From positions 1 to 57,915 of the forward strand of contig JAHBTG010000011.1 of assembly GCA_019638695.1 (NCBI GenBank): 57,915 nt of DNA. The letters are read 5' to 3'. The position numbers were made by a program, and so were the translations under genes. Source of the stretch: Bacteroidota bacterium. GTDB taxonomy: Bacteria > Bacteroidota > Bacteroidia > J057 > JAJTIE01. Positions 574 through 44,003 of the stretch are shown here, piece after piece. The first letter of the stretch is position 1; every line of letters starts with the position of its first letter. The notes below the pieces were generated by a model. The model was not told the DNA's origin. It was given only the letters and a program-made list of their open reading frames with translations, and searched no databases.

Positions 574-3132
574 CTATTGTTTGACCGACTGCGCACCCAT
601 CAGATATTCCAGGCGCTCCAGGCGGGCTCTCAGCTCGGCATTCTCCTGCTCCAGCTGTTGCAGACGCTGTTTATCGGGCTGCTGGCCGCAGGTACTCACC
701 TGGGCTTTCAGGGTTTCTATTTCCCGGTTCTGCTCCTTGATGGCATTGAGCATGGCCCACAGGATAGGGTCCTGGTTCAGCATCAGGTAGCCCTCCGCAT
801 TGGTGGTAACGGCCTCCGGGATCACTTTCTGTACATCCTGGGCCATAAAGCCGGTGTATTGCATGCCGTCTTCGTTATTCAGGCCATGCTTGCCATTATA
901 GCTATAGACTACGGGCTCCAGGGCCAGTACCTCGTGCAAACCGCGGGTGTAGTTGCCGTGCAGGTGCTTGAGGCGGGCATCTGAGAACGTGGCCCAGCTG
1001 CCGCCACCCGTTTTGCTGGCATTGCCGTTGACGCTCAGCTGCATATCCGGCGCAGTGGTGCCTATGCCTACCCGGTGATTGTCGGTCACGGTCATGGAGA
1101 TGACCTGATAACGCACATTGGCGCGTATGGAGAAATCCCTGCCAGCCCCGCGGCTGCTGATCCCTCCGCCATATCCATCGCAGTTGCACCCAAACCACGC
1201 AAAGCCATTGGTGATACCCACGGTATATACCTGCCCGGCTATTACAGGAATCGGTGTGGCCAGGGGGTGGTTGAGCTGGCCGGAAGAATAAGAGCCGCTG
1301 AAGGTAGTCAGCACCGGGCCGCCGGTACCTTCGCCTTCATATATGGTAAAAGTCTGGGAACCACTGCTCCCCCAATACATGCCAACAGAGACCAGCATGC
1401 CGGAAGTATTGATGGTAAACGACTGCCATTCCGGAGTAGAGGCATTGCCATTGGGATAGGCACTAGCCGACATATAGTTCACATCCTGGGTAACGGTCAC
1501 AGCCACATCTCCCACCTGCATCAATACGTTGGGGCTAGGGGCAATGACTCCGATGCCTACAGAACCGCCGCCGGTGGCGTTCAATACCAGGTTCTCGCTG
1601 GTACCGGTAGTGCGCATTTCATAAGTAGCGCTGGCAACCCCGCCCTGTATCATACCGGGCAGCCCGGCGCCGGGTTCTATGAAGATCTTGCTGCCGCCGC
1701 TCAGGTGCAGCGCCTCCGTAGGGGTTATCCCCACGCCCAGGTTGCCCCGCACATAGGTGAGGCCGTCACTGCCGCGCACACTGAAGTTGAGCTGTTCCGA
1801 GCTATTCTCAAAAAGGATACCCTGGCTACCGGCATTAGTGGTGCGCAGGCGAATGGCATGCTGCGAGAAACCGGCCCCGGCCACGGCATTCCCGCCTGCC
1901 AGGCTCTTGCCCGTGCCGCTCTGCCCCATGTAGATGCCCCAGTTAGAATCGCTAGCCATCCACATATAGATCCCGCGACTACTCCCGCCGTCTACGCTGT
2001 TCTGCACAACGTAGTGGCCGTCTACCAGCACATCTCCACCCACATGCAGCTTGGCGGCGGGGGCAACGCCTATGCCTACGTTAGTGCCGTTGTCCAGGAT
2101 CTGGCTATTCCCCATCATGCCGCCGCCGGTGTATTTCACTACGGTATTGGCAGTGCCCGTGGCTGACAGCGGCAGGGTACTCCAGGTATTCCAGGTGGCG
2201 GCATCCGGCAGGCCGGTACGGTGGTAGATACCATCCGCCGCAAAGAACAACTGGCTGAAATAGCCGCCGCTATTATCATTCCAGGGCGCTATGGTCATCA
2301 GGCCGCCAAAAGTGCTGGCGCCGGGCGCACCAATGGCCGTGCGTTCTTTGAAGGCCAGCGCCATTTCATTATCAAAGGTACTGGGCGCATCATTCACCGC
2401 CCGTGTATCCGGGATATTGATGCGGCCATAGAAATCGCCGGGGGCGGTGACGCTGCCGGTGGCCACCACATTGCCACTGACGGCAATATTACCCGCCACC
2501 TCCAAGCGCTGGGTGGGGGATGCCGTGCCTATGCCCAGTCTTTTGGCGGTATTATCCCAATGCAGCTCCGTGGGGCCATACAGGTCGGTTGACGCATTCC
2601 AGACCGCCAGCTTAGTGGTAACGCCCGTACCGGTAAGACCCGGGGCCGGGAACTGCCAGCTGGCCACGCCATTGACATCACTGGTCAGCACCTTACCGGT
2701 GGCCTGTGTGCCATCCACCAGCCGGAAACTGCCCACCACATGCAGGCGGGCAGAAGGAGTACTGATGCCTATACCCACATTATCCGTTCCATTGACCAGG
2801 TAAGCATTCCCCGGTGTGCGGTCCCACACCAGGGGAGCCGCGGTACCGCTCTGCACCTGGTCCCAACCACTGCCATTCCATACATACAGCTTACCCGCTA
2901 CCGTATCCGCCACCACCAGGCCCTGGTGATAGGGCGCGAGGGAACCGGCCAATGCGGTACGCTGTGCGGTGCCCACTTTGGGTAATAACAAGCCCCGGGG
3001 AGTGGTGGTATTCTTCAGCTCCAGCACCGCATGTGTATTGGGCGCAGCGGTGCCGATACCCACTTGTGCCCGGGCAGTTACCCAGCAACTCAAAAACAAC
3101 GCAAGGAATAACCCTAACTTGATGAAGGACAT
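574..3132 (-). CDS. Secreted tail-fibre-like protein with C-terminal S74 chaperone domain (copy 1)
   Basis: 852-residue exported protein. I start at the ATG at 3132 because the signal peptide MSFIKLGLFLALFLSCWVTARA follows directly; an upstream ATG at 3174 would add 14 residues. After the signal peptide comes an N-terminal module (VGIGTAAPNTHAVLEL...GLLLPKVG), then about six stalk-like repeats of the form NVGIG..P...L.V.G. A pyocin-knob-like segment lies near residues 237-323 (ends TWNTWSTL), followed by a beta-sandwich segment. The C-terminus carries a peptidase S74 domain (intramolecular chaperone of endosialidase) with FSDARLKHL, DPILWAMLNAIKEQN and a coiled coil. In this family the chaperone folds a trimeric fibre and cleaves itself off before the Ser of SD.R.K; that Ser (about residue 717) and the Lys are present. 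Likely surface adhesin or fibre. Paralogue of the next gene. Confidence 0.85.
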   Translation of the reverse strand: MSFIKLGLFLALFLSCWVTARAQVGIGTAAPNTHAVLELKNTTTPRGLLLPKVGTAQRTALAGSLAPYHQGLVVADTVAGKLYVWNGSGWDQVQSGTAAPLVWDRTPGNAYLVNGTDNVGIGISTPSARLHVVGSFRLVDGTQATGKVLTSDVNGVASWQFPAPGLTGTGVTTKLAVWNASTDLYGPTELHWDNTAKRLGIGTASPTQRLEVAGNIAVSGNVVATGSVTAPGDFYGRINIPDTRAVNDAPSTFDNEMALAFKERTAIGAPGASTFGGLMTIAPWNDNSGGYFSQLFFAADGIYHRTGLPDAATWNTWSTLPLSATGTANTVVKYTGGGMMGNSQILDNGTNVGIGVAPAAKLHVGGDVLVDGHYVVQNSVDGGSSRGIYMWMASDSNWGIYMGQSGTGKSLAGGNAVAGAGFSQHAIRLRTTNAGSQGILFENSSEQLNFSVRGSDGLTYVRGNLGVGITPTEALHLSGGSKIFIEPGAGLPGMIQGGVASATYEMRTTGTSENLVLNATGGGSVGIGVIAPSPNVLMQVGDVAVTVTQDVNYMSASAYPNGNASTPEWQSFTINTSGMLVSVGMYWGSSGSQTFTIYEGEGTGGPVLTTFSGSYSSGQLNHPLATPIPVIAGQVYTVGITNGFAWFGCNCDGYGGGISSRGAGRDFSIRANVRYQVISMTVTDNHRVGIGTTAPDMQLSVNGNASKTGGGSWATFSDARLKHLHGNYTRGLHEVLALEPVVYSYNGKHGLNNEDGMQYTGFMAQDVQKVIPEAVTTNAEGYLMLNQDPILWAMLNAIKEQNREIETLKAQVSTCGQQPDKQRLQQLEQENAELRARLERLEYLMGAQSVKQ
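726..1032. repeat. Direct repeat, copy A (S74 coding region)
   Basis: This 307-bp stretch, encoding most of the S74 domain of copy 1, aligns without gaps to 3353-3659 (constant offset 2627) with only scattered substitutions. It indicates a recent duplication or gene conversion of the chaperone-coding end. Confidence 0.8.
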
Positions 3133-3257
3133 GGTAGCTTGGTTAGGTAAATTTCTGACCTTGAAATTACGCATAAATCCAAGCCGTCCAATCCTCTGCG
3201 CAATTTTGGGCTGGTTATGGCATGTTCCGGCCGGGGGACAGACCGACTTATCCCCCG

Positions 3258-6140
3258 CTATTTCTGCGCCGACTGCACACCCAGCATTTGCTCCAGGCGT
3301 TCCAGGCGGGACTTCAGCTCGGCATTCTCCTGCTGCAACTGGTGCACCTGCTGGTTCTGCTCCTTGATGGCGTTGAGCATGGCCCAGAGGATAGGGTCCT
3401 GGTTCAGCATCAGGTAACCCTCTGCATTGGTGGTAACAGCCTCCGGGATCACTTTCTGCACATCCTGGGCCATAAAACCGGTATGACGCCTGCCGTCCTC
3501 ATGATTCAGGCCATTCCTGCCGTTGTAACTGTAGATCACGGGATCCAGCGCCAGGATCTCCTTCAAACCACGGGTATAGTTGCCATGCAGGTGCTTGAGG
3601 CGGGCATCTGAGAACGTGGCCCAGCTGCCGCCGCCCACCTTGCTGGCATTGCCGTTGACCGAGAAGGTAACATCCGGCACATTGGTATTGATACCCACCC
3701 TGCCATTGGGCCCGCTCACAAAAAGCGGACTGGTGGGCTGGCTCAGGTAGGTTTTGAAGGTCATATCTGCATTGCCGCTATTGAAAGAGCATTGCCCGCC
3801 TGCGTAGGTACCCGAGCCAAATCCATAGCGCGCACCGCCACCGTTAATGATCTGCATAGTGTATTGCTGACCAGCCGTAACACTAAGCGGCATAGCCAGG
3901 TAGGCAATGCCCAGTGGCGCCTTGAAGCCCGAGGCACTGGTGAGCAAAGCCCCCCCGGTACCCACACCGGCATAGATATTGAGACTAAAACCGGCCCCTA
4001 TGTTATCAAAGAATTCCACCCCTATCTGCGTGATAAATCCATTGCCCACTACCGTCCAGGACTGCCAGTATTGCGTGTTATCTCCGCCCCCGGCACCCAC
4101 GCCACTGGTGGGCTGGTTCACATCTATCACGGGCTCTGAGTAACCGGTGATCTCAAAGTGCTTGAGCCCGTTGGCAATGGAGGTATGTTGCATCAGAGAA
4201 CCGCCCATGCGAATATCATCCACCACTTTGACAATGCCATTGCTGGCGGTGGTTCCGCCAGCAGGCGTTTGCCAGGCAGCATTCCCACTGGCATCGCTGG
4301 TCAACACACGGCCAGCGGCCTGGGTGCCGTCTTCCAGCCGCAAATTACCAATCACATGGAGCTTGGCCGAAGGGGCATTCGTACCAATGCCCACATTGCC
4401 GCCGGCAGTATTAATGGACAGATTTGCCCAGGCGCCCAGTGTAGCGTTATGCCCCCCTATGGTGGCCACACCACCCAGCTCGCCCATAATTACCGAAGCG
4501 CTGGTGTAGCCAAAGGCGGCCCCACCCTTCCATGCGCCGGGTTCATTGCTATACCCGCGGATGGAAACTGCCTGGCCATCCGCGGCCGGTGCTTCACCCA
4601 CTGATAACCGGTGTAGCCCGGGGTTGGTGTTGGCGATACCCACACGCCCCAGGTGGTTGATCCACATGCGCACAGTAGGTACGTTACCGGAGGTGCGGCG
4701 GCCCGCCGGGTCTATACCGCCGCCGCCGGAGGTAGCCAGCCCGATGCCGCCGGAAAAGCCGCCGCCACTGTTGGGGTCCACAGTGGTGATAATCTGGGCA
4801 ATGGAAGCCTCTGCGCTTCCATTGTGACTGCGGAAATCGATGAGGTTATTGCTATACCCCAGCCCGGAAACAAGAGTGCCGTGACGGCGCGTGAGAATAA
4901 TGTCTGCCTTCTCTGTACCATAGGGGATAAACCCGCCCGCATTCCACGTAGCCTGGGCATCCCCCGCTTGGTTGCGGACTATATCTATGGTGCCTTCGGG
5001 TGTAAGGGTACTGAACCCCAGATTATACCCTATGCCCACATTCCCGGTGATTTTGCTGATGCGCATCACAGCGTCAGCACGTCCCAGCTGGCTGCCGGTC
5101 AGGCCGTTCACAAGGGTCCAGAGGTCATTGGTGGAACCGTCACCCATAAGCCCTATGGCAAACTGGCCGGTGGCCCCTTCCAGCACCCCGGCGCCCGTAT
5201 GAAAAGATAAGAATCCATAGCCCGAGGCTGCTGTGCGACCTATCACCAAGCCGTCGTTCCAGTTACCGGCTACTGCCCGTATCACGGCATTGCCATTCAT
5301 TTCCAGGGTAGAAGCCGGCGTAGCAACGCCTATACCCAAACGGCTGTTGGTATTGTCCCAGTGCAGGTTGGCAGGCGCCAACAGGTTACTAACGCTATTC
5401 CACACGGCCAGTTTGTTCGTAGTGCCGGTACCGGTGATCCCGGGAGGCGGCAGGGGCTGCCACGAGGCCAGGCCCGTAGCGTCGCTGGTCAGCACACGGC
5501 CCGAGGCCTGGGTACCGTCGGTCAGCCGAAAGCCCCCGTTAACTTCCAGGCGGGTGCCGGGCGAGGTAGTACCTATGCCCACATTCCCACTGATGGCAAA
5601 GTACATCCAGTTATTACCTACAGCAATAGGGTCGTTATGGCTGTTGGTCTGCAGGGAGAACCTTTTGAGGGTAGGATCCCACTGCAACTGCCCGCCCCTG
5701 TTGCCTGCCTCGCCCACCTGCAGGATACTATAGCCGGTGGCCTGGCGTATCTCCAGCCGGGAAACGGGCGTATTGGTACCTATACCCACATTATCCGTTG
5801 CATTGAGCAGGAACACATTACCGGCCACACGATCCCAGGCCAATGGAGCCGGCGCACCGCTCAGCACCTGCTCCCAGGCACTGCCATTCCACATATACAA
5901 TTTACCGGCAACCGTATCTGCCACCACCATACCCTGGTGATAAGGCGTCAAAGAGCCGGCCAGCACAGTACGCTGAGTGGTACCTACCTTGGGTAGCAGC
6001 AGCCCACGAGGTGTAACCGAGTTCTTGAGCTCCAGTACGGCATGGGTATTGGGGCTGGCAGTCCCAATGCCCACTTGCGCCTGAACATGACCCAAACAAC
6101 AGAAGCCGGCCAGGAGCAAGCAAAATTTAGCCAAACGCAT
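3258..6140 (-). CDS. Secreted tail-fibre-like protein with C-terminal S74 chaperone domain (copy 2)
   Basis: 960-residue paralogue of the preceding S74 gene, in tandem on the same strand with a 125-bp gap. Signal peptide MRLAKFCLLLAGFCCLGHVQA, then the same N-terminal module (VGIGTASPNTHAVLEL, GLLLPKVG, LYMWNGSAWEQV). About eight stalk repeats follow, such as GNVGIGTTSPGTRLEVNG and GNVGIGTNAPSAKLHVIG. The S74 domain starts at FSDARLKHL, with the putative self-cleavage Ser near residue 844, and ends in a heptad-rich coiled coil (HQLQQENAELKSRLERLE). A beta-sandwich segment containing YWQSWTV precedes the S74 domain in both copies. The N- and C-terminal modules are highly similar between copies while the middle differs, as in phage tail fibres that swap binding domains. 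Role: probably trimeric surface adhesin; ligand unknown. Confidence 0.85.
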   Translation of the reverse strand: MRLAKFCLLLAGFCCLGHVQAQVGIGTASPNTHAVLELKNSVTPRGLLLPKVGTTQRTVLAGSLTPYHQGMVVADTVAGKLYMWNGSAWEQVLSGAPAPLAWDRVAGNVFLLNATDNVGIGTNTPVSRLEIRQATGYSILQVGEAGNRGGQLQWDPTLKRFSLQTNSHNDPIAVGNNWMYFAISGNVGIGTTSPGTRLEVNGGFRLTDGTQASGRVLTSDATGLASWQPLPPPGITGTGTTNKLAVWNSVSNLLAPANLHWDNTNSRLGIGVATPASTLEMNGNAVIRAVAGNWNDGLVIGRTAASGYGFLSFHTGAGVLEGATGQFAIGLMGDGSTNDLWTLVNGLTGSQLGRADAVMRISKITGNVGIGYNLGFSTLTPEGTIDIVRNQAGDAQATWNAGGFIPYGTEKADIILTRRHGTLVSGLGYSNNLIDFRSHNGSAEASIAQIITTVDPNSGGGFSGGIGLATSGGGGIDPAGRRTSGNVPTVRMWINHLGRVGIANTNPGLHRLSVGEAPAADGQAVSIRGYSNEPGAWKGGAAFGYTSASVIMGELGGVATIGGHNATLGAWANLSINTAGGNVGIGTNAPSAKLHVIGNLRLEDGTQAAGRVLTSDASGNAAWQTPAGGTTASNGIVKVVDDIRMGGSLMQHTSIANGLKHFEITGYSEPVIDVNQPTSGVGAGGGDNTQYWQSWTVVGNGFITQIGVEFFDNIGAGFSLNIYAGVGTGGALLTSASGFKAPLGIAYLAMPLSVTAGQQYTMQIINGGGARYGFGSGTYAGGQCSFNSGNADMTFKTYLSQPTSPLFVSGPNGRVGINTNVPDVTFSVNGNASKVGGGSWATFSDARLKHLHGNYTRGLKEILALDPVIYSYNGRNGLNHEDGRRHTGFMAQDVQKVIPEAVTTNAEGYLMLNQDPILWAMLNAIKEQNQQVHQLQQENAELKSRLERLEQMLGVQSAQK
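3353..3659. repeat. Direct repeat, copy B (S74 coding region)
   Basis: Partner of 726-1032 within the second S74 gene. The similarity ends just upstream of the chaperone domain, where the fibre bodies of the two proteins diverge. Confidence 0.8.
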
Positions 6141-6267
6141 AGTATAGTTAGTATAGTATATTTTTTATACAAAATCAGACCATGAAAATTACATAAAGGG
6201 CGAACACTTCTTACATTTTTTCGACGAAAAATAAAAGGGCTCCCCTGTGTGCGTTATATCGCCCACT
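6141..6267. promoter_or_regulatory. AT-rich upstream region of the second S74 gene
   Basis: Directly upstream of the ATG at 6140 lie short AGTATA units repeated three times (6141-6160) next to a T-run. This is the probable promoter region of the minus-strand S74 gene. No clean TAnnTTTG box is seen; the nearest, TAATTTTC on the minus strand, has one mismatch. Confidence 0.35.
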
Positions 6268-6291
6268 CTCACGCGGCCGGAGCCGCGTGAG
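6268..6291. repeat. Perfect 10-bp stem-loop
   Basis: CTCACGCGGC (6268-6277) and GCCGCGTGAG (6282-6291) form a perfect stem with loop CGGA. It lies between divergent genes and is not followed by a T-run on either strand, so it is unlikely to be a terminator. First of a series of stem-loops in this gap. Confidence 0.75.
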
Positions 6292-6297
6292 CAAAGT

Positions 6298-6414
6298 ACC
6301 CGTCATGCCGAACTGGTTTCGGCATCCCCGGCCATCTACCTCGAGTGTCATCCTGAGCGGAGCGAAGGATCTCTGCCACCCCCCGTCATGCCGAACTGGT
6401 TTCGGCATGACGGG
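6298..6414. repeat. REP-like palindromic repeats, two copies around a GCGGAGCGAAGGAT core
   Basis: The unit CCCGTCATGCCGAACTGG followed by TTTCGGCAT occurs at 6299-6325 and again at 6382-6409. The second copy closes into a perfect 14-bp stem: 6382-6395 pairs with 6401-6414, loop CTGGT. Between the copies is ATCCTGAGCGGAGCGAAGGAT (6350-6370), itself an imperfect palindrome. Related sequence recurs at 46382-46466 and 51305-51365. This looks like a dispersed intergenic repeat of REP type; no gene is encoded here. Confidence 0.75.
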
Positions 6415-6468
6415 TATGGAAAAGCCTGCCTTGCCGGCACATACAGGGTATAGCCCGGATGCTGTATT

Positions 6469-6642
6469 CGTACTTTTTTCTTGACAAAAAAGTACGCAAA
6501 AAATCAAGGCTGAACAGCAAAAAGGGGAGTCTCCTGTGCTCCGGCGGCCCAAAACAAACTCGGAACCCTGATGGGGTTCCTCAAACAGTGTTTTGGGCTG
6601 TTCGCCTTCGCACAATCGCCTCTTGTTCCCCCTTTTGCTGTT
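6469..6642. repeat. MITE-like or structured-RNA element with nested inverted repeats
   Basis: A perfect 11-bp inverted repeat, CGTACTTTTTT (6469-6479) and AAAAAAGTACG (6486-6496), is followed by a nested fold. AACAGCAAAAAGGGG (6513-6527) pairs with CCCCCTTTTGCTGTT (6628-6642) at 14 of 15 positions. Inside it, GCCCAAAACA (6547-6556) pairs with TGTTTTGGGC (6589-6598), and an apical GGAACCC (6562-6568) pairs with GGGTTCC (6574-6580). The arms nest in order, as in a folded RNA or a small non-autonomous mobile element. It sits between divergent genes, so it is not a shared terminator. No coding potential was recognised. Confidence 0.65.
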
Positions 6643-6821
6643 AGGCCGATTTGGCAGAGATGTATAGCTTGAAGATGGGAAAAGACATCATCCGGTGTAA
6701 ATTGGTATATCATTGCCTTAAAAAGGGTGTCAATAGATATATCATTACCAATCCCTTTGGGATTAAGCTACTTACCCGTAATTTCGCCGGCAGCTACCAT
6801 TACCTTATTATACCCCAACTC

Positions 6822-8213
6822 ATGAATACTTTTGACCTTATTGTCATAGGCAGCGGCCCCGGGGGCTATGTAGCCGCCATCCGTGCCAGCCAGCTGGGCC
6901 TCAAAACCGCCGTTGTAGAGCGCGAAAACCTGGGGGGCATCTGTCTCAACTGGGGATGTATCCCCACCAAGGCCCTGCTCAAAACCGCGGAAGTAGCCGA
7001 CTATTTCGGCCATGCCAAGGACTACGGCTTCAGCAGCGCCTCCTTCAAGAATGACTTTGGGGCCACGGTGCAACGCAGCCGCGGTGCCGCCGAGCAAATG
7101 AGCGGAGGGGTCAAGTTCCTCATGAAGAAGAACAACATTACGGTCATAGAAGGCACCGCCAGGCTGAACAAGCAAAAGCAGGTGAATGTGACCGACAAGG
7201 CCGGCAAAACTACGGCCTACACCGCCAAGCATATCATCATAGCCACCGGCGGCCGCAGCCGCAACCTGCCGGGCATGGAGATCGACGGCAAGCTGATCAT
7301 CGGCTATCGCGAAGCGCTTACCCTATCCGCACAGCCCAAGAAAATGATCGTCATGGGCAGCGGCGCCATAGGTACGGAGTTTGCCTATTTCTACAATGCC
7401 ATTGGTACGGAAGTGACCCTTATTGAATACCTGGACCGCATTGTACCCCTGGAAGATGCCGATGTGAGCAAGGAACTGGAGAAGCTCTACAAAAAGCGGG
7501 GCATGGGCATCATGACCGCCAGTAAGGTCACCAAGGTGGAGAAGCTGGCCAAAGGTGTAAAAGTGCACGTGGAAACCAAGAAAGGCACCGAAGTGCTGGA
7601 AGCCGACGTGCTGCTCTCGGCCGTAGGGGTCATAGCCAATATTGAGAACCTGGGCCTGGAAGAACTGGGCATCAAAACCAGTAATGGCAAGATCGATACG
7701 GATGCATACTACAAGACTAATGTGGAGGGCATCTATGCTATTGGCGATTGTACGCACGGACCCGCGCTGGCGCATGTGGCTTCTGCCGAGGGCATCACCT
7801 GCGTGGAGAAGATCGCCGGGCATCATCCCGAAGCCATTGACTATGGCAACATCCCCAACTGTACTTACTGCCAGCCAGAGATTGCCTCCGTGGGTCTTAC
7901 CGAAGCCAAGGCCAAGGAAGCAGGCTATACCCTCAAAATAGGCAAGTTTCCCTTCACCGCCAGCGGCAAGGCAACCGCCGCCGGCAAACGCGACGGGTTT
8001 GTAAAGCTGGTGTTCGACGCCAAATACGGTGAACTGCTGGGCGCTCATATGATTGGCGCAGGGGTAACGGACATGATAGCCGAGCTGGTGCTGGCCCGCA
8101 AGCTGGAGACCACCGGCCACGAGATCATTAAGGCTGTGCACCCGCACCCCACCATGAGCGAAGCCGTTATGGAAGCTGCTGCTGCTGCCTACGGAGAGGT
8201 CATTCACCTCTAA
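6822..8213 (+). CDS. lpdA: Dihydrolipoyl dehydrogenase (E3)
   Basis: 463-residue flavoprotein that reoxidises the dihydrolipoyl groups of 2-oxoacid dehydrogenase complexes using NAD. The N-terminus has the FAD-binding GSGPGG motif (residues 11-16). The redox disulfide is GGICLNWGCIPTK with Cys41 and Cys46. A second NAD-binding GSGAIGTEFAYF motif follows, then the FAD-contact IYAIGDC, and the C-terminal active-site His in HPHPTMSEA. The length is normal for the family. I start at the ATG giving MNTFDLIVIG; the frame is open 57 codons further upstream but that extension is not family-like. No E1/E2 gene is adjacent, so it may be shared by several complexes. A good terminator follows. Confidence 0.95.
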   Translation: MNTFDLIVIGSGPGGYVAAIRASQLGLKTAVVERENLGGICLNWGCIPTKALLKTAEVADYFGHAKDYGFSSASFKNDFGATVQRSRGAAEQMSGGVKFLMKKNNITVIEGTARLNKQKQVNVTDKAGKTTAYTAKHIIIATGGRSRNLPGMEIDGKLIIGYREALTLSAQPKKMIVMGSGAIGTEFAYFYNAIGTEVTLIEYLDRIVPLEDADVSKELEKLYKKRGMGIMTASKVTKVEKLAKGVKVHVETKKGTEVLEADVLLSAVGVIANIENLGLEELGIKTSNGKIDTDAYYKTNVEGIYAIGDCTHGPALAHVASAEGITCVEKIAGHHPEAIDYGNIPNCTYCQPEIASVGLTEAKAKEAGYTLKIGKFPFTASGKATAAGKRDGFVKLVFDAKYGELLGAHMIGAGVTDMIAELVLARKLETTGHEIIKAVHPHPTMSEAVMEAAAAAYGEVIHL

Positions 8214-43929: not shown

Positions 43930-44003
43930 CTCCCCCACCTGGGCTCGAACCAGGGACCTAATGATTAACAGTCATTCGCTCTAACCAACTGAGCTATGGG
44001 GGA
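43930..44003 (-). tRNA. tRNA-Asn (anticodon GTT)
   Basis: 74 nt on the minus strand. The acceptor stem TCCCCCA pairs with TGGGGGA with discriminator G. Other parts: D-arm TAGCTCAGTTGGTTAGAGC, anticodon loop with GTT (complement at 43967-43969), and T-arm with GGTTCGAGCCC. CCA is not encoded. It has its own consensus promoter and terminator, so it is a single-gene unit. The matching synthetase gene, asnS, is also in the window at 53390. Confidence 0.97.

What the first reader, a model, noticed from the sequence alone, without database searches (positions are those of the whole stretch)
6268..6642. Highly structured non-coding island between divergent genes
At least four stem-loops lie in 375 bp (10-bp, 14-bp and 11-bp perfect stems, then a nested ~130-nt fold with three in-order arms). 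Since the flanking genes point away from each other, these cannot be ordinary terminators. The nested element with near-perfect terminal repeats (6513-6527/6628-6642) could be a MITE, or an expressed structured RNA.
Basis: partly seen in the sequence, partly recalled or inferred. Interest (0 to 1): 0.62.

Follow-up and report, generated by a model that had tools for sequence, protein, structure and literature searches.

The report
Structured module inside small jumping DNA
The folded stretch is one of about two dozen copies of a small non-coding mobile element whose elaborately folded core recurs across the Bacteroidota phylum, carried by unrelated kinds of transposon, which suggests the fold itself does something useful that is not yet known.

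Summary
The stems are real and far beyond chance (RNA z -8.2, DNA z -6.5). Two things are mixed. 6268-6416 is a cluster of CGTC-type REP-like palindromes. From 6471 to 6648 lies a ~180-nt structured core, present in 24 long copies in this genome. Its base pairs covary strongly: 23 of 59 pairs change on both sides, 0 of 500 shuffles as high. The true ends are ~24-bp inverted repeats further out; sister copies carry them with 8-bp target duplications. A 2.4-kb IS1595 transposon with the same ends exists in another genome. The window copy keeps only the right end (6694-6717). So the MITE reading is right for the family. The surprise: the same core, with a covarying pseudoknot, occurs across Bacteroidota, and in one Chitinophagaceae genome sits between IS4-type ends (9-bp duplications). 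Neither parent transposon contains it. Wobble asymmetry favours an RNA read from the AGGCC end. In relatives that strand is usually sense to a gene ending beside it (84 versus 45), suggesting a 3'-end or terminator role; this window copy, between divergent genes, is the exception. No Rfam family matches. Transcription was not tested.

The parts
6268..6291 (.). 10-bp perfect palindrome (REP-like)
   Evidence: I12; matches at other places of the own genome
6299..6325 (.). REP-like unit with CGTC end, first copy (CCCGTCATGCCGAACTGGTTTCGGCAT)
   Evidence: D1; many further places
6347..6373 (.). second REP-like unit (GTCATCCTGAGCG..GCGAAGGATCTC)
   Evidence: sequence; repeated in the own genome
6382..6416 (.). 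REP-like unit, second copy, here a 14-bp perfect hairpin
   Evidence: D1, I3
6425..6470 (+). left flank shared with the 'type B' copies; stands where the left TIR would be in this chimeric copy
   Evidence: alignment; no left TIR in the window copy
6471..6494 (+). hairpin TACTTTTTT / AAAAAAGTA with loop 6480-6485
   Evidence: conserved across Bacteroidota
6480..6508 (+). pseudoknot strand pair: loop 6480-6485 (CTTGAC) with 6503-6508 (ATCAAG)
   Evidence: loop and downstream strand covary between genomes; helix 9
6508..6648 (-). long imperfect hairpin, base GGC/AGGCC; proposed RNA strand is the minus strand, which starts at the AGGCC end
6556..6589 (-). apical module: AAACTC (6556-6561) and TCAAACAGT (6581-6589) around a covarying stem
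6694..6717 (-). right terminal inverted repeat of the IS1595-type MITE
6726..6749 (-). second, degenerate TIR copy in the same orientation
   Evidence: (D2)

Best explanation
The element is a decayed, chimeric copy of a non-autonomous DNA transposon (MITE) whose cargo is a conserved structured module. SHOWN: the module (6471-6648) is multicopy here, covaries, and recurs across Bacteroidota; in this genome the TIR-bearing copies have IS1595-type ends and 8-bp duplications; in a Chitinophagaceae genome the same module lies between IS4-type (DDE_Tnp_1 + DUF4372) ends with 9-bp duplications; the two parent transposons lack the module. INFERRED: the MITEs were moved in trans by those transposases; unrelated MITEs acquired the module separately; the working molecule is an RNA read from the AGGCC end (window minus strand), forming a ~140-nt hairpin followed by a U-rich tract and a 3' pseudoknot; it acts at transcript 3' ends, as a terminator or 3'-end protector, making insertions next to gene ends tolerable or useful. 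Likelihoods: MITE origin 0.9; module shared by unrelated MITEs 0.85; RNA rather than single-stranded DNA 0.65; terminator or 3'-end function 0.3.
For: Copies: 24 long matches including the window. TIR and 8-bp duplication: TAAAAAAT 8/8 (L001), 7/8 (L003, L004), 6/8 (L005, L264); CTCAGGAG 8/8 in L265, read by eye. Autonomous partner: 2,406-bp element in L341, TIRs GGCAATGATATAC.., duplication AAAATAAA, DDE_Tnp_IS1595 at 1.8e-43. IS4 case: identical 9-mers at both ends of L128, L131, L179, L198, L205 with TIR matches 14-15 of 18; 1.31-kb IS4-type parent with 9-bp duplications. Exact-duplication-plus-TIR pairs at >=12/18: 13 of 118 cores, against 0.2 on average when flanks are mismatched. Covariation: 23 of 59 pairs with double changes, 0/500 shuffles, slid structures at most 8. 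Strand: wobble columns 33 versus 14 in favour of the AGGCC-first strand while unpaired transitions are even, 90 versus 85; Fisher p 0.031; consensus energy -69.0 versus -55.8; minus strand folds better in 59 of 73 unique cores. Context: 84 facing versus 45 away, p 0.0008.
Against: No transcript data exist here. A first single-arm wobble test was neutral (28 GT versus 31 AC). The pseudoknot is sterically easier on the other strand (my geometry, not computed). It is lost in some copies: loop inverted in L013 and L019, a palindrome inserted in the loop of several G149 copies, poor pairing in the G149, G069 and G131 types. Arms often change as whole blocks (L014 and L021, L010), which DNA template switching at palindromes could also produce. 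The window copy itself is between divergent genes, the rarest context (11 of 96). For most cores (105 of 118) the strict test found no TIR with exact duplication. The own genome has no IS1595, IS1 or Y1 transposase.
Confidence: 0.72

Rival explanations
1. The module is a DNA-level feature: a long imperfect palindrome that works as a single-stranded hairpin (for example in transposition during replication) and is kept complementary by template-switch repair at quasipalindromes.
For: First wobble test neutral; arms replaced as blocks in L010, L014, L021 and a half-replaced hybrid L016; palindromes nest inside each other.
Against: Wobble columns differ between strands while unpaired transitions do not; one-sided changes appear on the AGGCC-first strand and hardly on the other; internal-loop motifs are conserved between otherwise unrelated cores; the duplications are those of DDE transposons.
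Confidence: 0.25
2. Ordinary MITE with no function of its fold: the core is only an old internal remnant that spreads with the ends.
For: MITE hallmarks are clear; chimeric and decayed copies abound.
Against: The core outlives the ends: it is shared between IS1595-type and IS4-type MITEs that share no TIR, was not found in either parent, and keeps covarying helices and fixed internal loops.
Confidence: 0.15
3. REP/BIME array moved by a tyrosine (Y1/RAYT) transposase.
For: The neighbouring palindromes 6268-6416 carry CGTC ends, like the CGTC REPs of PMC3733652 (passages read).
Against: No Y1_Tnp in the own genome; none of 12 Y1 loci examined carries the core; the core's copies have TIRs and 8- or 9-bp duplications.
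Confidence: 0.03

Closest known systems
MITEs of IS1595-family transposons
   Same: TIRs and 8-bp duplication as in the 2.4-kb IS1595 element of L341; no coding capacity seen; multicopy
   Different: carries a phylum-wide structured core that the transposon lacks
MITEs of IS4-type transposons (DDE_Tnp_1 + DUF4372)
   Same: TIR CATTGTTGTCCGG and 9-bp duplication match a 1.31-kb IS in the same genome
   Different: same structured core as the IS1595-type MITE of the window genome
ERIC, BOX, RUP type intergenic repeats (recalled)
   Same: short, dispersed, palindromic, intergenic
   Different: pseudoknot, fixed internal loops, distribution over a phylum, several TIR families
CGTC-tagged REPs (PMC3733652, passages read)
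   Same: the palindromes at 6299-6416 have the CGTC end; [quoted passage not shown]
   Different: applies to the neighbouring cluster, not to the core
Structured RNAs of mobile elements: HEARO/omega RNA, IS110 bridge RNA, retron RNA (recalled)
   Same: conserved structured RNA inside mobile DNA
   Different: no linked nuclease, recombinase or reverse transcriptase seen; no recurring neighbour gene in 118 loci
Triple-helix pseudoknots such as telomerase RNA or ENE elements (recalled)
   Same: U-run, U/A stem and short second stem in pseudoknot order on the AGGCC-first strand
   Different: resemblance by inspection only; the second loop is very short

Membership tests
IS1595-type MITE (own-genome family) | terminal inverted repeats like those of an IS1595 transposon | tested here: met
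   GGYAATGATATAC..TTNANACC in own copies and in L341
IS1595-type MITE (own-genome family) | 8-bp target-site duplication | tested here: met
   8/8 in L001, 7/8 in L003 and L004, 6/8 in L005 and L264; L265 8/8 by eye
IS1595-type MITE (own-genome family) | both TIRs and a duplication in the window copy itself | tested here: not met
   only the right TIR is present
IS1595-type MITE (own-genome family) | transposase in the same genome | tested here: not met
   no PF12762 match in the own genome, which is a 146-contig assembly
IS4-type MITE (Chitinophagaceae genome G535 and its loci) | TIR plus 9-bp duplication and a parent IS | tested here: met
REP element of a RAYT | flanks a Y1 transposase gene | tested here: not met
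   0 of 12 Y1 loci carry the core; no Y1 in own genome
Any Rfam 15 family | score above gathering threshold | tested here: not met
   only a tRNA in the whole window; sub-threshold hits near the element are far below their gathering scores
Integron attC site | invariant AAC/GTT core triplets at the two ends | tested here: not met
   the 3' end is TTAGGCC in many copies without a preceding GTT and the 5' end varies; the attC rule is recalled
Structured RNA gene | transcript exists | not testable with these tools
   no expression data
Structured RNA gene | compensatory changes beyond shuffled controls | tested here: met

The most novel reading that the evidence does not exclude
A Bacteroidota-wide structured RNA module lives as a passenger of DNA transposons: unrelated MITE families have repeatedly acquired it, because its fold (long hairpin with fixed internal loops plus a U-rich 3' pseudoknot, possibly a triple helix) caps or protects transcripts at gene ends and so lowers the cost of insertion. 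It would be an RNA cargo that outlives its vehicles.
Probability: 0.35. Interest if true: 0.82.

Novelty: new variant of a known kind. Interest (0 to 1): 0.62.

Why it matters
MITE interiors are usually thought of as expendable. Here the interior is the conserved part and the ends are what differs between lineages, in a whole phylum that includes gut and environmental bacteria. If the RNA reading is right, it gives a new conserved RNA family, a handle on transcript 3' ends in Bacteroidota, and an example of RNA structure as selectable cargo of DNA transposons. It may also be a source of spurious ORFs in annotations there, since the stem lengths vary out of frame.

Tried and rejected
RAYT/REP origin of the core: rejected (112 of 149 class genomes have Y1 genes, so mere co-occurrence says little). 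IS1 as the parent, suggested by the GGNNNTG ends: 9 of 60 genomes have IS1, none in the own genome; superseded by IS1595. PF12762 in the own genome: none. Integron attC: ends do not fit. Coding function: stem and linker lengths vary by one or two bases between genomes, so the frame is not kept. A linked protein: no recurring neighbour among 118 loci. A Bacteroidota -7 promoter motif (recalled) beside the core: 2 to 4 of about 134 on any side or direction, no enrichment. Terminator scan of 6140-6850: 2 found, 0.6 expected, neither at the closing helix. Correlation of linker and stem A-runs as a triple-helix test: too little variation. Phages (no match), plasmids (2 records, only ~40 bp of the hairpin region) and viral contigs (1 stretch) gave little. 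Literature: searches listed no paper that I could see describes this element; only passages of PMC3733652 and PMC9769881 were read, the rest seen as search listings.

Rows dropped: of the 34 places with a BLAST hit to the own element, alignments A1 and A2 hold 23. Left out were L002 (my script cut it at an inner AGGCC), four copies with a different central module (L026, L027, L028, L039), L024 and L034 (no standard hairpin), and four cut by contig ends (L032, L033, L035, L036). The wobble count held three duplicate loci; one search repeats it without them. Core detection needs a loop-complement of at least 5 bases, so copies with a broken pseudoknot are under-counted. For the pattern scan the match itself requires the canonical loop and GGCT, so those loci cannot serve as independent evidence for those bases. 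Gene context rests on my ORF caller, not on annotation.

Full report
OBSERVATION. The 401 nt from 6260 to 6660 fold at -177.8 kcal/mol against -131.2 +/- 5.7 in 100 shuffles, and 6460-6660 as DNA at z -6.5. No Rfam family matches.

TWO LAYERS. 6268-6416 is a cluster of short palindromes: one unit occurs twice within it (6299-6325, 6382-6408) and they recur in the genome. Two of them carry a CGTC end, as do the CGTC REPs of PMC3733652, for which the authors report no dedicated transposase (passages); the own genome has no Y1 transposase. 6471-6648 is a different thing: a ~180-nt core with 24 long copies including this one (alignments).

THE CORE. On the window plus strand it reads: hairpin TACTTTTTT-loop-AAAAAAGTA, A-rich linker, a six-base strand complementary to the loop, then a long imperfect hairpin closed by GGC/GCC and ending AGGCC. 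In 23 own-genome copies, 59 proposed pairs (pseudoknot included) are 97% paired, 23 pairs change on both sides (0 of 500 shuffles as high; slid structures reach at most 8), covariation score 0.210 against 0.090. Arms can be replaced as blocks, and four copies plus L265 carry another central module.

ACROSS THE PHYLUM. The 5' part was found in 10 of 59 other genomes in a first look. A strict pattern hits 12 of 392 genomes of the phylum, own included, and its reversed control hits none of those listed; this is a lower bound. Between genomes loop and partner change together: CTTGAT/ATCAAG, CTTGAC/GTCAAG, CTTGAA/TTCAAG, CTTGCC/GGCAAG, ACGAA/TTCGT; so do stem pairs: TAC/GTA, TTC/GAA, ATC/GAT, TCC/GGA, and TTCTTTTGG/CCAAAAGAA in own copies L264 and L265. 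Exceptions exist. The long arms differ in sequence between lineages but pair far better than shuffled arms (median score 27 against 15.75), and carry recurring internal loops: AAACTC/TCAAACA near the tip in 22 of 73 unique cores (shuffled 0.2) and CTAAAA/TTTCTTAACG in 19 of 73 (shuffled 0).

MOBILITY. In the own genome TIR-like ends occur at 23 places against 2 for the reversed control. Full copies L001, L003, L004, L005 and L264 are 258-321 bp with 8-bp duplications matching 8, 7, 7, 6 and 6 of 8; L265 shows CTCAGGAG on both sides (read by eye). The same ends bound a 2,406-bp transposon in G101 with duplication AAAATAAA, an IS1595 transposase and a KilA-N passenger, and one such end lies beside an IS1595 gene in G019, same order. 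The window copy has only the right TIR (6694-6717); its left flank is that of the 'type B' copies, so it is a chimera. In a Chitinophagaceae genome the core lies between CATTGTTGTCCGG ends with 9-bp duplications, matching a 1.31-kb IS4-type transposon in that genome. A third type of end, TGAATATCCG, with repeats of about 8 bp at both sides of several copies, occurs in G149. The core motif was not found in either coding parent. Over 118 cores, 13 have exact duplications with TIRs of at least 12/18, against 0.2 in mismatched controls; the other 105 did not pass, through decay, other ends or another way of spreading.

WHICH STRAND, RNA OR DNA. Wobble pairs should favour the transcribed strand. 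A first test on single arms was neutral (28 versus 31). Counting variable columns in related families gave 33 versus 14 in favour of the AGGCC-first strand, while transitions at unpaired sites were even (90 versus 85; Fisher p 0.031; one search is the same over ten families with three duplicate loci). The AGGCC-first strand also folds better in 59 of 73 cores, and its consensus energy is lower (-69.0 versus -55.8). This favours an RNA, moderately; quasipalindrome repair in DNA remains a rival.

CONTEXT AND FUNCTION. In three locus sets the gene beyond the AGGCC end points towards the core in 12 of 18, 28 of 40 and 44 of 71 cases (ORFs of at least 150 aa), together 84 versus 45 (p 0.0008); the other side is even (80 versus 70). 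Thus the proposed RNA is usually sense to a gene that has just ended. On that strand the closing helix is followed by UUGAUUUUUU. I infer a 3'-end role, as terminator or protector, at about 0.3. The window copy is in the rarest context, between divergent genes (11 of 96), so no such role is claimed for it. No adjacent protein recurs.

NOVELTY. The MITEs are of known kinds; a covarying, phylum-wide structured core shared by unrelated MITEs is, as far as five literature searches and Rfam show, not described. I rate it a new variant of a known kind, with a bolder reading that it is a transposon-borne RNA module.

Noticed in passing
window 6268-6416: Cluster of CGTC-type REP-like palindromes, abundant in the genome although it has no Y1 transposase.
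   Followed up: partly
L013 and L019 (own genome): The hairpin loop is inverted (ATCAAG instead of CTTGAT), as if the small palindrome had flipped.
   Followed up: no
L245, L246, L258-L261 (G149): A palindrome CCCGATAGCAATCGGG is inserted in the loop of hairpin 1 of several copies.
   Followed up: no
L026, L027, L028, L039, L265 (own genome): Copies with the same ends of the core but a completely different central structured module.
   Followed up: partly
L341 579-2984 (G101): IS1595 transposon carrying a KilA-N domain passenger gene (PF04383).
   Followed up: partly
L047, L086, L113, L150, L155, L215: Head-to-tail tandem copies of the core with periods of about 266-381 bp.
   Followed up: no
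window 574-3174 and 3258-6140 minus: Two long paralogous, repetitive ORFs with near-identical C-terminal ends, possibly surface or fibre proteins; not searched.
   Followed up: no
window 43930-44003 minus: tRNA gene, the only Rfam match in the window.
   Followed up: no
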